In this document: positions 55,547-59,140 of the stretch, piece after piece
Numbering within the stretch: position 1 is the stretch's first letter
Layout of the letters: the number at the start of each line of letters is the position of its first letter
From: Lactiplantibacillus garii
GTDB lineage: Bacteria; Bacillota; Bacilli; Lactobacillales; Lactobacillaceae
DNA: 64,000 nucleotides
NCBI RefSeq assembly: GCF_003885105.1
Contig: NZ_QWZQ01000006.1
Location: 1-64,000 of the forward strand
Direction: 5' to 3'
Notes under the pieces: generated by a model
Told to the model about the DNA's origin: nothing
Databases searched by the model: none
The model's input: the letters and a program-made list of their open reading frames with translations, nothing else
Made by a program: the position numbers and the translations under genes

Positions 55547-56290
55547 ATGACGGTCAAAAATAAAGTTATTGTTATCACGGGAGCGTCTTCCGGAATCGGT
55601 GAAGCCAGTGCGAAACTGTTAGCCCAAAACGGCGCGAAGGTCGTTTTAGGGGCGCGGCGTGAAAACCGGTTGCAAGCGATTGTCAAGGACATTGAAGCGG
55701 CCGGTGGACGGGCAGCCTACGCCGTGACCGACGTGACTAAACCCGCTGAAGTCAAACACTTAGTACAAGTAGCACAGGACCAGTTTGGCGGTCTTGACGT
55801 AATCTTTAATAACGCTGGGATCATGCCAACGTCGCCCATCAGCGCGCTGCACACCGACGAATGGGACCAAATGATTGATATTAACATCAAAGGGGTGCTT
55901 AACGGCGTTGCTGCGGTCATGCCCATTTTCACCGCCCAAAAACGGGGCCAAATCATTACGACCTCGTCCGTTGCCGGTATTAAAAGCTTTACCGGTGCCG
56001 GGGTCTACGGAGCAACCAAATTTGCCGTTCGCAACCTAATGGAAGTTATTCGGATGGAAAGTGCGCAAGAGGGGACCAATATTCGGACCGTCAGCCTGTA
56101 CCCGGCGGCTATCAACACCGAATTGTTACACACCATCACTGACAAAACGTCCAAAGAAAACATGGATGCATTTTACAAACAGGTCGGTATCGCTCCGAGT
56201 GCGGTCGCTAACGTCGTCAACTTCGCGGTCGACCAACCCGAAGACGTTAACGTCAACGAATTTACGATCTACCCAACCAAGCAGGCTTAA
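55547..56290 (+). CDS. Short-chain dehydrogenase/reductase
   Basis: A 247-residue classical SDR. TGASSGIGEA is the NAD(P)-binding glycine motif, NNAG is present, catalytic Ser lies in TTSSVAGI and YGATK holds the Tyr-x-x-x-Lys pair. ARRENR after strand 2 points to NADP preference. It is the third gene of the operon (cupin-CMD-SDR) regulated by MerR, likely reducing a reactive carbonyl compound. AGGAGG lies seven bases before ATG. Confidence 0.9.
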   Translation: MTVKNKVIVITGASSGIGEASAKLLAQNGAKVVLGARRENRLQAIVKDIEAAGGRAAYAVTDVTKPAEVKHLVQVAQDQFGGLDVIFNNAGIMPTSPISALHTDEWDQMIDINIKGVLNGVAAVMPIFTAQKRGQIITTSSVAGIKSFTGAGVYGATKFAVRNLMEVIRMESAQEGTNIRTVSLYPAAINTELLHTITDKTSKENMDAFYKQVGIAPSAVANVVNFAVDQPEDVNVNEFTIYPTKQA

Positions 56291-56335
56291 CGGGTACAGT
56301 TTACAATGGGCCTTGTCGATATTGGCTGGTGACCC

Positions 56336-56491
56336 GGCGCCCTCCGAAAAAGCCTGAAATGATAGCTGTGGGCACGCTTTTGAGCTAATTCAAAACCCGA
56401 ATTATCTCAAAAGGCGACCTTGTTGTAAGCTCACCAAAAACGTGAGCCAACAACAATTTCACAGCTATATTTCAGAAATTCTCCGGGCGCC
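56336..56491 (+). repeat. Three-stem structured element, copy 1
   Basis: An outer imperfect stem (GGCGCCC...CTGAAAT...AGCTGTG with CACAGCT...ATTTCAG...GGGCGCC) encloses two hairpins: GCTTTTGAG.TAATTC/GAATTA.CTCAAAAG and TTGTTG-GCTCAC/GTGAGC-CAACAA. Junction sequences GTGGGCAC, CGACCTT, GTAAG and ATTTCAC are shared with the inverted copy at 56750-56905. Confidence 0.75.
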
Positions 56492-56586
56492 TAGCATGGA
56501 TGTCCTCAAGTTGTACCGGCACTGATTAGTTAAAATGGTTAGAACTGGCCGTTGCCACTAAATAGTTGCAGAATTTAGGATGTTAA

Positions 56587-56635
56587 AAATGGTGTCCCCT
56601 TCAAAATCATGTAGATTTTGAAGGGGACACCATTT
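56587..56635. terminator. Perfect 22-bp hairpin
   Basis: Arms AAATGGTGTCCCCTTCAAAA and TC... are exactly repeated inverted around a five-base loop (ATGTA). It lies between the two copies of the three-stem element. It could act as a terminator in either direction, though long T runs are missing. Confidence 0.6.
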
Positions 56636-56749
56636 ATTTATTAAGCCCTTACTAAGCGTTAGCCTGGATGGCATTAAAAGCGACATGATTGGCAACGAGT
56701 AGTTAAAGCCAATTAAAATAGTCGTTACCGCCCGCCAACGACCAATCTA

Positions 56750-56905
56750 AGCCGGGAGGGAGAGCGTGGACATCCCCAGCGGTGAAATTTCACTTAGTCA
56801 CTGTTTTTTAGTGACTTACGTGAAAGGCCAAGGTTTGAGACCTGTTTTGGGGGCTCAAACTTGTGCCCACCGCGTTCCGGGATGAGCCACGCCGACCGGA
56901 CGGCT
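56750..56905 (-). repeat. Three-stem structured element, copy 2 (inverted)
   Basis: Read on the minus strand: outer stem AGCCG...GCGTGG...ATCCC...CGGTG with its complements, hairpin 1 AAGTTTGAG/CTCAAACCT, hairpin 2 TTTCAC-GTCACT/AGTGAC-GTGAAA (read in reverse). The junctions GTGGGCAC, GTAAG and ATTTCAC match copy 1 while the paired arms differ. Confidence 0.7.
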
Positions 56906-57030
56906 GAAAAGTTAAATCAAAATTTGAATTGAGAAGCACCGGCCACCACCAAGTTGGTCAAACCATAAAATTGGCGAGTAGTGGTGCGAATTTTTAAAGT
57001 TAGTGATGCCGTTTACGCGTTTGTAGCAGA

Positions 57031-58248
57031 TTATTTTAAACTTAATCCCCGTTTCAGATTGCCCCAGAAACCGAGTTCGTCGGTTTGGAGCATTAGGCCG
57101 CCATAGATGCGACCGATATAGGCCATGCTGCCGATAATCGTGGCGAGCAGGATGACCATTGAAATACCGGCTTGCAGGCCGGACGCACTGTTATTGATCA
57201 GGCGTAACGGCATGAGGTATGACGAGAAGAACGGGACGTACGAGAAAATTTTAACGAACGTGTTGGTCGGGTTGCCTTGAAAGGCGAGGGCGACCGCAAA
57301 CGTGATCAGGTTTAAGTAAACGACCGGTTGGGAAGCTTTGCCGGCGTCTTCTACTCGGGTCACTAACGCACCACAAAAAGCGGAAATGACGGTGTAAAGC
57401 AGGACGGCCAACAATGCAAACAGCAGGTTGATCGATAACAAGTTGTGCAGGATCTGGTTGATAACACCGGCGTTTTGTTGCCAAAAGTCGGCCGTAACGC
57501 GGCTTTTTTGTGCCACTTGAACTAGGATCACCCCGCCCAGTAGGTAGATCAGCAACTGGGTCACGATAACGAGTAACACACCGTAAACTTTGCCGTTGAA
57601 GTATTTGCGGGGAGTCGTACTCGAAAAGATGACTTCCATGATCTTAGTCCCTTTTTCGGCGGCAATCTCCTGAGCCGTAATGGACGAGTAGGTCGTTAGG
57701 ATCAGGTAAACGAAGAACACGATAATGTAAAAGGAGATTCGTTTGGCCAGTTTGTCGGTCGCGGTCTTTTTTTGTAACCGTTGTTTAAACTGGGGCTGAA
57801 CGGCTAGTGCTCGGGTTTGTTGCTTAGATAACTTTGCCTGACTGAGGTTGAGCGCGGTTTGGGTCGTGGACAAAAAACGTTGAATTTTTGCCTGGTCCCC
57901 GCTGCTAACGGCGTCGGGGCCGTGGAAAGTCGCCGTTAACTGGTTGTTTTTCACGGTCAGTGTTAAGTAACCATTGATATCACTACGTTTAGTGGCACGC
58001 TGAGCGCTACTTGTCGTGGCGTACTTATCGGTCGTGGCAATGCCGCTGCTATCCAGAAAGTTGGCGCGCAGCGCGGTATTTTTGCTGACGACCGCAATGT
58101 CATTTTTACTCTGGTTGGGGGTCGCGAGGTACGAAATACCAAAGGAAAGCCCCACGAAGAGGAACGGCATCAGTACTAGCGTTAAAAAGCTCCAAGACTT
58201 AACTTGGCGCAAGTAGGTTTCTAAAGTTACGATCCACGTTTTATTCAC
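57031..58248 (-). CDS. ABC-2 type permease, NatB-like
   Basis: A 405-residue membrane protein. An N-terminal helix (FLTLVLMPFLFVGLSFGISYLA) is followed by an extracellular domain (about 50-175) and a C-terminal block of five to six helices, with EIAAEKGTKIMEVIFSSTTPRKYFNGKVYG as the typical cytoplasmic ABC-2 segment. NatB/YhaP-type permeases export sodium or small hydrophobic molecules. The start is GTG 58248 behind GGGAGG; the longer frame upstream overlaps the ATPase gene. It overlaps that gene by eight bases. Confidence 0.85.
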   Translation of the reverse strand: MNKTWIVTLETYLRQVKSWSFLTLVLMPFLFVGLSFGISYLATPNQSKNDIAVVSKNTALRANFLDSSGIATTDKYATTSSAQRATKRSDINGYLTLTVKNNQLTATFHGPDAVSSGDQAKIQRFLSTTQTALNLSQAKLSKQQTRALAVQPQFKQRLQKKTATDKLAKRISFYIIVFFVYLILTTYSSITAQEIAAEKGTKIMEVIFSSTTPRKYFNGKVYGVLLVIVTQLLIYLLGGVILVQVAQKSRVTADFWQQNAGVINQILHNLLSINLLFALLAVLLYTVISAFCGALVTRVEDAGKASQPVVYLNLITFAVALAFQGNPTNTFVKIFSYVPFFSSYLMPLRLINNSASGLQAGISMVILLATIIGSMAYIGRIYGGLMLQTDELGFWGNLKRGLSLK

Positions 58249-59140
58249 GTTGGCCACCTCCCGCTTCGGTCCGGAAAATTTCGTCGAGGGTGGGGGGCTG
58301 CTGACTGAACTCGGGAACGTACTGGCCAGCTGTGACCTTGTCAAAGATGGCGGGGCCAACACTGGCGTCCGCCAATTGGAGGCGGTAACGGTGCGGCCCA
58401 ATGGTTTTAACGCTCGTAACTCCGGTAAGTTCACTGAGTTGGTTACTGGTCCAATCGGTGGTTAGAAATAGGCGGGTTCGACCGAATTGCTGACGAACGT
58501 CGTCGATGGTTCCTTTTAAGACGGTCTGCCCGTTACGCAGCATCACCAGTGAATCGCAAATTTCTTCGACGTTACTCATGTCGTGACTGGAAAAAATAAT
58601 GGTTGCGCCGCGCTGTTTGGCGTCTAAAATGGCCTGTTTCAACAAGTCGGCGTTGACCGGGTCGAGCCCGCTAAACGGCTCGTCTAAGATGATCAGTTGC
58701 GGGTCGTGGATCAACGTGCAGATCAACTGGACTTTTTGCTGGTTCCCCTTGGAGAGCTTGTTAATACGGTCAGTTGGTTGCCCCTTGACTGCAAAGCGGG
58801 CCATCCAATCCTTGATCTTGGGTTTCGTTACGTTGGCGGACTGGTTTTTAAGCCGGGCCAAATAAACGATTTGTTGCGTGATGGTCAGCTTGGACATGAG
58901 ACTACGTTCTTCGGGTAAGTAACCAATTTGATCGTAGTCGGCGGCGGTTAGCGGCTGGCCGTTCCAGGTAATCTGACCGTCAAACGTTAGGAAGTTTAAG
59001 ATACTATGAAACGTGGTTGATTTTCCAGCCCCGTTTTGACCGATTAAACCCATGATCTCCCCGTCATGGACGTCAAACGAAACCGCGTTTAACGCTTTAA
59101 CCGTGCCAAAGGTTTTGCTAATGTTTGCTACCGATAGCAT
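58241..59140 (-). CDS. ABC transporter ATP-binding protein, NatA-like
   Basis: A 299-residue ATPase. Walker A GQNGAGKST (about 36-44), signature LSKGNQQK and Walker B LIILDEPFSGLDP; the C-terminal 80 residues are an accessory domain (TRLFLTTDWTSNQLSEL...). Signature LSKGNQQK is common in the NatA/YhaQ group. It is the first gene of a two-gene operon with the ABC-2 permease. Confidence 0.9.
   Translation of the reverse strand: MLSVANISKTFGTVKALNAVSFDVHDGEIMGLIGQNGAGKSTTFHSILNFLTFDGQITWNGQPLTAADYDQIGYLPEERSLMSKLTITQQIVYLARLKNQSANVTKPKIKDWMARFAVKGQPTDRINKLSKGNQQKVQLICTLIHDPQLIILDEPFSGLDPVNADLLKQAILDAKQRGATIIFSSHDMSNVEEICDSLVMLRNGQTVLKGTIDDVRQQFGRTRLFLTTDWTSNQLSELTGVTSVKTIGPHRYRLQLADASVGPAIFDKVTAGQYVPEFSQQPPTLDEIFRTEAGGGQRE

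What the first reader, a model, noticed from the sequence alone, without database searches (positions are those of the whole stretch)
56290..57030. Two inverted copies of a covarying three-stem element in a 740-bp gene-free stretch
Each ~156-nt copy has an outer stem and two inner hairpins. Short junction sequences (GTGGGCAC, GTAAG, ATTTCAC) are conserved, while the paired arms differ and remain complementary. That is the pattern of selection on RNA or DNA structure. A perfect 22-bp hairpin lies between the copies. No ORF or known RNA class fits.
Basis: seen in the sequence. Interest (0 to 1): 0.85.

Follow-up and report, generated by a model that had tools for sequence, protein, structure and literature searches.

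The report
Mobile cloverleaf repeats in Lactobacillaceae genomes
The two folded elements are copies of a repeat family, found in up to more than a hundred copies per genome in lactobacilli, that keeps its cloverleaf fold while its letters change and that appears to jump into the hairpins that end genes.

Summary
In detail: two inverted three-stem copies flank a perfect 22-bp hairpin. A covariance model built from 20 copies finds 31 matches in the host genome, up to 135 in a relative, and matches in 129 of 397 genomes of the family. In an order-level sample all 24 matching genomes of 395 belong to that family. All 30 model pairs change on both sides somewhere; no Rfam family fits.

Neighbouring copies are convergent (12 of 12 in the host, 27 of 28 in relative G128), so the typical unit is an inverted pair. 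In G128, 11 units (386-528 bp) keep recognisable outer inverted repeats: 5 have direct repeats of 6-12 bp at the ends, and 5 lie inside a host rho-independent terminator. Relatives hold empty terminators at such sites.

Most likely it is a non-autonomous, MITE-like mobile repeat with three-way-junction ends and a preference for terminators. No mobilising enzyme was found. Wobble counts give no support to RNA selection on the GTGGGCAC strand. Closest kinds: REPINs and Enterococcus EFAR/Efa-1; homology is not shown.

The parts
56336..56491 (+). copy 1 of the three-way-junction element (outer stem, two inner hairpins); model core 56357-56473
   Evidence: fold z -7.07; CM 120.9 bits, E 5e-30 in the window
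56752..56899 (-). copy 2, inverted; model core 56771-56881
   Evidence: fold z -5.72; CM 92.7 bits, E 1.5e-22
56368..56375 (+). GTGGGCAC, end of the outer stem and start of hairpin 1, copy 1
   Evidence: pattern match; invariant in the 20 copies of A2
56425..56429 (+). GTAAG in hairpin 2, copy 1; faces CTAAC/CCAAC with an A-A mismatch
   Evidence: pattern match; invariant in A2; mismatch read from the sequences
56456..56462 (+). ATTTCAC, 3' side of the junction, copy 1
   Evidence: invariant in A2
56587..56635 (.). perfect 22-bp hairpin between the copies, bidirectional-terminator-like
   Evidence: solitary terminator-like hairpins occupy the same spacer in G071, G227, G258, G323, G342
55547..56290 (+). 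flanking gene: short-chain dehydrogenase (PF00106)
57031..58434 (-). flanking gene: ABC-2 type permease (PF12698), convergent with the dehydrogenase

Best explanation
It is a non-autonomous mobile repeat. The unit is an inverted pair of about 150-175-nt ends, each able to fold into a three-way junction, around a short middle stem or a terminator hairpin, with weak outer terminal inverted repeats. Units spread in the chromosome and land preferentially in or beside intrinsic transcription terminators, often in the hairpin loop, making direct repeats of about 6-12 bp. Shown: copy number, covariation, convergent pairing, direct repeats, empty sites, terminator preference in G128. Inferred: an enzyme supplied in trans recognises the folded single-stranded ends (and perhaps the folded target hairpin), which would select for shape rather than sequence; single copies are decayed or half units. 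Not shown: the enzyme, transposition in real time, and whether the recognised form is DNA or RNA.
For: 31 matches in the host genome, arranged as 12 convergent neighbour pairs of 12; 105 in G128, 27 of 28 neighbours under 700 bp convergent against 3.6 neighbours of any kind expected by chance. 129 of 397 family genomes match. Of 11 G128 units with both outer repeats recognisable (38 loci scanned), 5 have direct repeats of at least 6 bp against 3 of 110 mismatched flank pairs, and joined flanks fold better than swapped ones (permutation p 0.0011) because 5 of 11 sit inside a terminator. Empty terminators at the same site in relatives: L191 (empty in G397, G245, G195), L197, L192, L199, L200, L186. 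58 of 59 copies in 800 kb of G128 are intergenic, most often in convergent spacers (13 of 54, against 6 of 97 divergent; p 0.0036).
Against: 6 of 11 units show no direct repeat of 6 bp or more and 6 of 11 do not lie in a terminator; unit L185 sits between divergent genes. Length of the direct repeat varies (6, 7, 7, 7, 12). Both 3WJ ends are very alike in recent G128 copies while the outer repeats vary, which could also reflect gene conversion. No autonomous partner with the same ends turned up next to low-copy elements, inside long-gap pairs or in 800 kb of G128. No copies on plasmids or phages by blastn and none in viral contigs.
Confidence: 0.68

Rival explanations
1. A structured RNA with a host function (3' UTR element or small RNA) that happens to be multi-copy; the fold is kept because the RNA works.
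For: Strong two-sided covariation with conserved unpaired positions. In the host genome 21 of 25 copies with a called upstream gene lie downstream of it in the same orientation.
Against: In G128 only 17 of 30 and in one copy each from 27 other genomes only 13 of 27 are in sense with the upstream gene. Copy number runs from 0 to over 100 within one family. At pairs, A-C outnumbers G-U (45 to 21 in 68 representatives, 124 to 48 in all 146), the reverse of what RNA selection on this strand should leave; the other strand remains possible. No Rfam family.
Confidence: 0.15
2. An ordinary MITE moved by a DDE transposase that reads only the short outer inverted repeats as duplex DNA; the cloverleaves are passengers kept for another reason, such as protection from read-through.
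For: Outer repeats GGTTCTTTCTTAAG and direct repeats near 7 bp. From memory, not from a call: ISL3-family ends begin similarly and make 8-bp duplications.
Against: The outer repeats are poorly kept while the cloverleaves are nearly identical in recent copies. No IS with matching ends in 800 kb of G128.
Confidence: 0.25
3. Complementarity is produced by mutation, not selection: template switching corrects imperfect palindromes, so arms co-change without function.
For: One-sided (G-U) intermediates are rare: 48 G-U cells of 4332.
Against: A riboswitch control aligned the same way is equally poor in G-U (7 of 540 cells, TPP, 30 Lactobacillaceae sequences), so rarity is not diagnostic. Correction should also erase the conserved A-A mismatch in GTAAG/CTAAC and the internal loops, which persist (read by eye).
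Confidence: 0.07
4. It is a Lactobacillaceae branch of a known family, the Enterococcus EFAR/Efa-1 repeats, or a REPIN system with a RAYT enzyme.
For: Efa-1: 163 bp, 65 copies, intergenic, double hairpin (PMC2267715, passages). REPINs: inverted doublets as mobile unit, singlets as remnants (PMC3116915, passages).
Against: No matches outside the host family in an order-level sample; the paper on EFAR is not held and its sequences were not compared; no RAYT was looked for.
Confidence: 0.2

Closest known systems
EFAR / Efa-1 repeats of Enterococcus
   Same: Efa-1 is about 163 bp, dispersed, intergenic, with two adjacent stem-loops predicted on both strands (passages of PMC2267715). From memory only: EFARs integrate at stem-loop target sites and keep parts of the target stems at their ends, as here.
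   Different: Here an added outer stem makes a three-way junction, units are convergent pairs, and deep covariation spans many genera. The EFAR paper (doi 10.1111/j.1574-6968.2008.01461.x) is not held; no sequence comparison was possible.
REPINs / BIMEs with RAYT (TnpAREP)
   Same: Inverted doublets as the mobile unit, singlets as likely remnants, tandem clusters, extragenic (passages of PMC3116915; PMC6006769).
   Different: REP hairpins are 20-40 bp with a GTAG foot; here each end is about 150-175 nt with a junction, there are direct repeats, and no RAYT was found or searched for.
bcr1 of the Bacillus cereus group
   Same: Similar size and copy number (up to 130), chromosomal, mobile features (passages of PMC6542083).
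   Different: Tied to a TTTAT motif and restricted to B. cereus group; different structure and target.
S. pneumoniae BOX, RUP, SPRITE and other bacterial MITEs
   Same: Short, non-coding, structured, intergenic; terminator-like members exist (passages of PMC10969869).
   Different: No known member with covarying three-way-junction ends was seen in the passages read.

Membership tests
Bacterial MITE | no coding capacity, under about 600 bp | tested here: met
   units 386-528 bp; no ORF in the window copies
Bacterial MITE | terminal inverted repeats | tested here: inconclusive
   recognisable at both ends in 11 units from 38 scanned G128 loci; not seen at the window unit, whose outer flanks do not match each other (by eye)
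Bacterial MITE | target-site duplication | tested here: inconclusive
   5 of 11 with 6-12 bp, against 3 of 110 swapped pairs
Bacterial MITE | ends shared with an autonomous element | tested here: not met
   none found in about one third of G128 or by low-copy loci; two thirds of that genome not examined
REPIN | inverted doublet as main arrangement | tested here: met
   12 of 12 and 27 of 28 neighbour pairs convergent; 50 of 105 copies in G128 are single
REPIN | GTAG or CGTC foot beside a 20-40-nt palindrome | tested here: not met
   absent from the consensus ends read in A1/A2
REPIN | RAYT gene in the genome | not tested
EFAR / Efa-1 | sequence homology to the enterococcal repeat | not testable with these tools
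   paper not held; R1 gave no match outside the host family in 395 genomes of the order, sampled and with strict filters
EFAR / Efa-1 | integration at stem-loop targets (recalled) | tested here: met
   empty terminators at L191, L197, L192, L199, L200, L186; 5 of 11 units in terminators
Any Rfam RNA family | score above gathering threshold | tested here: not met
   0 in the window; none in five loci with copies

The most novel reading that the evidence does not exclude
A class of mobile element in which the transposition ends are folded three-way junctions and the target is a folded hairpin: an unknown enzyme joins structured single-stranded (DNA or RNA) ends into terminator loops. Shape is then the sequence-independent currency at both ends of the reaction, which would explain why arms drift freely as long as they pair.
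Probability: 0.3. Interest if true: 0.82.

Novelty: new variant of a known kind. Interest (0 to 1): 0.62.

Why it matters
If right, a repeat family that fills intergenic space in many fermentation and gut lactobacilli rewrites gene ends: it lands in terminators and carries its own terminator hairpins. It would also give a tractable system for asking how a mobile element can keep a complex shape without keeping its sequence, and which enzyme reads it. The model here (R1) could annotate these repeats, which Rfam lacks.

Tried and rejected
Orientation by gene: the sense bias of the host genome (21 of 25) did not hold in G128 (17 of 30) or in 27 other loci (13 of 27), so a 3'-UTR rule was dropped. 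Low G-U as proof of a DNA structure: dropped after the TPP riboswitch control showed the same low G-U (7 of 540 cells). Strand preference: A-C over G-U shrinks to 24 against 18 in 68 representatives when the three pairs richest in A-C are left out, so it is not pressed. Replication-strand bias: 30 of 50 single copies, no signal (origin position assumed).

Search for a partner gene: low-copy genomes (12 genomes, 22 matches, 13 stretches) showed no shared neighbour beyond ABC transporters and housekeeping genes; pairs with long gaps held ordinary genes; TIR-flanked genes in 800 kb of G128 were not seen. Two copies of an IS605-type tnpB turned up but one lies away from any unit, so it was judged a bystander. 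Plasmid and phage searches gave nothing; 32 viral pattern hits are chance by the model. Of the non-Lactobacillaceae pattern hits, the 31 tested had no model match (together with 30 TPP loci: 0 of 61).

Family and order scans use strict filters and list at most 9 matches a genome. The 20 G128 loci were the best-scoring matches. Alignment A3 is fitted to the model. Sites L187 and L195 could not be resolved. Ten paper searches showed no description of this family in Lactobacillaceae; the library is open-access only.

Full report
What is there. The 740-bp spacer between a short-chain dehydrogenase gene and a convergent ABC permease gene holds two inverted copies of a three-stem element, 56336-56491 (+) and 56752-56899 (-), and a perfect 22-bp hairpin between them. 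Each copy folds better than all 200 shuffles; the stretch 56336-56899 folds as single-stranded DNA with z -12.6.

A family, not a pair. A pattern of the three motifs hits three places in the host genome and many contigs in the genome collection (stopped at its limit). In the 28 loci listed with folds (29 tried) the ones with the full fold were from Lactobacillaceae: Lactiplantibacillus, Levilactobacillus, Companilactobacillus, Lapidilactobacillus. Model R1 from 20 copies finds 31 matches in the host genome at E up to 1 (27 of them at 2e-5 or better), 105 in G128, 135 in G279, 106 in G332, 101 in G361, down to 3 in G249. In the family 129 of 397 genomes and 15 of 40 genera match; in the order 24 of 395, all 24 in that family. 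As a check on false positives, 61 other loci gave no match at E up to 0.01.

Covariation. On 20 MAFFT-aligned copies, 147 cells change on both sides and keep the pair, against 48.5 in shuffles and at most 30 when partners are slid. On 146 distinct copies aligned by the model the figures are 1225, 360 and 197; that alignment leans towards the structure. One measure on A2, further pair types, is not above its shuffles (44 against 44.6). The fold also has conserved unpaired letters: GTAAG facing CTAAC with an A-A mismatch, and an internal loop around GGAAC and CTGA (read). More distant relatives with other letters score 26-44 bits.

DNA or RNA? Over 30 pairs and 146 copies there are 3967 Watson-Crick, 48 G-U and 124 A-C cells. 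In 68 representatives A-C leads 45 to 21, but only 24 to 18 without three pairs. A TPP riboswitch control from the same family shows 7 G-U and 3 A-C of 540 cells. So rarity of G-U says nothing, and the balance gives no support to RNA on the GTGGGCAC strand. It does not rule out RNA from the other strand.

Arrangement. In the host genome 12 of 12 neighbour pairs run + then -. In G128 27 of 28 neighbours closer than 700 bp do, where 3.6 neighbours of any kind are expected. Other patterns exist: ++-- in L. plajomi (L006, L155) and +++- with a 168-bp period in G080. Fifty of 105 G128 copies are single by the model; several of these have a visibly decayed partner.

Mobility. In G128 the cloverleaf parts are near identical between loci while outer sequence varies. 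Eleven units of 386-528 bp with both outer repeats were recognised among 38 loci. Five have direct repeats at their ends (12 with one mismatch, 7, 7, 7 and 6 bp) against 3 of 110 swapped pairs (Fisher p 1.1e-4). Five sit in a rho-independent terminator, and real flank pairs fold better than swapped ones (p 0.0011). The other six show no terminator around them in this test. Relatives at 93-97% identity have the plain terminator: at L191 GCGGACCAATTC-GATTAGG-AATTGATTCGC in G245 and near forms in G397 and G195. At L197 all three relatives are empty, at L192 two, at L200 three, at L199 one with the same terminator (the other two have unrelated ones), at L186 one. In L191, L197, L192 and L199 a junction falls in the loop; in L186 it is at the base and in L200 just upstream. 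L185, between divergent genes, is empty without a terminator in several relatives (14 of 20 loci printed). In 800 kb of G128, 58 of 59 copies are intergenic; 13 of 54 convergent, 26 of 243 tandem and 6 of 97 divergent spacers carry one.

The window locus. The same spacer was read in 20 genomes (one of 21 genomes gave no locus). R1 matches lie in it in seven: the host (two copies), G038, G287, G125, G211, G300 and G273 (two further loci match elsewhere). In G071, G227, G258, G323 and G342 only a terminator-like hairpin separates the two genes. So the middle hairpin of the window stands where the shared terminator should be; whether it is the host's or came with the unit is open. Units in G128 do carry a similar hairpin of their own. 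The left and right ends of the window unit belong to two subtypes also paired in other host units, and their outer flanks do not match each other, so this unit looks old or hybrid.

How it most likely works. A unit is copied or cut out and inserted near or into a terminator hairpin, probably by an enzyme acting in trans that recognises the folded ends; the terminator function is kept by the host's arms or by the unit's own hairpin, so the cost is low and copies build up. Mobility, pairing and target are supported by the data; recognition of shape is inference; the enzyme is unknown. Searches next to low-copy elements, within long gaps and in a third of G128 found none.

Against what is known. 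REPINs share the inverted doublet and high copy number (PMC3116915) but have small palindromes with a GTAG foot. Efa-1 of Enterococcus faecalis is a 163-bp double hairpin in 65 copies (PMC2267715); I recall, but could not read, that this EFAR family integrates at stem-loops. That is the nearest match in behaviour. bcr1 is comparable in size and number (PMC6542083). I file it as a new variant of the structured-MITE kind and not as a member of any of these.

Noticed in passing
L288 and L289 (G195 and G397), spacer of L185: The unit at one orthologous site is inverted between two genomes at 94-97% identity, while its outer flanks keep their orientation.
   Followed up: no
L442:18116-19285, L440:7156-8325, L187:1-820: IS605-type tnpB (PF07282, PF01385) copies in G128; in L187 its right end abuts the outer repeat of a unit, in L442 it lies 225 bp from a copy, in L440 it splits or adjoins a dehydrogenase gene away from any unit.
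   Followed up: partly
L294, L295, L297, L204, L216: Relatives of other sequence with the same arrangement, some with an extra hairpin, occupy the same spacers in other species; R1 scores 26-41 bits there.
   Followed up: partly
L410:430-1150 (G080): Three tandem copies with a 168-bp period and a fourth in inverse orientation, next to a terminator.
   Followed up: no
G000 contigs C67, C110 and C158, contig ends: Three identical 45-nt partial matches sit at contig ends, so the assembly breaks at this repeat and the true copy number is probably higher.
   Followed up: no
L192, L197 (G128): In several units the core of the right cloverleaf has been deleted, leaving only its outer stem as a simple hairpin.
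   Followed up: no
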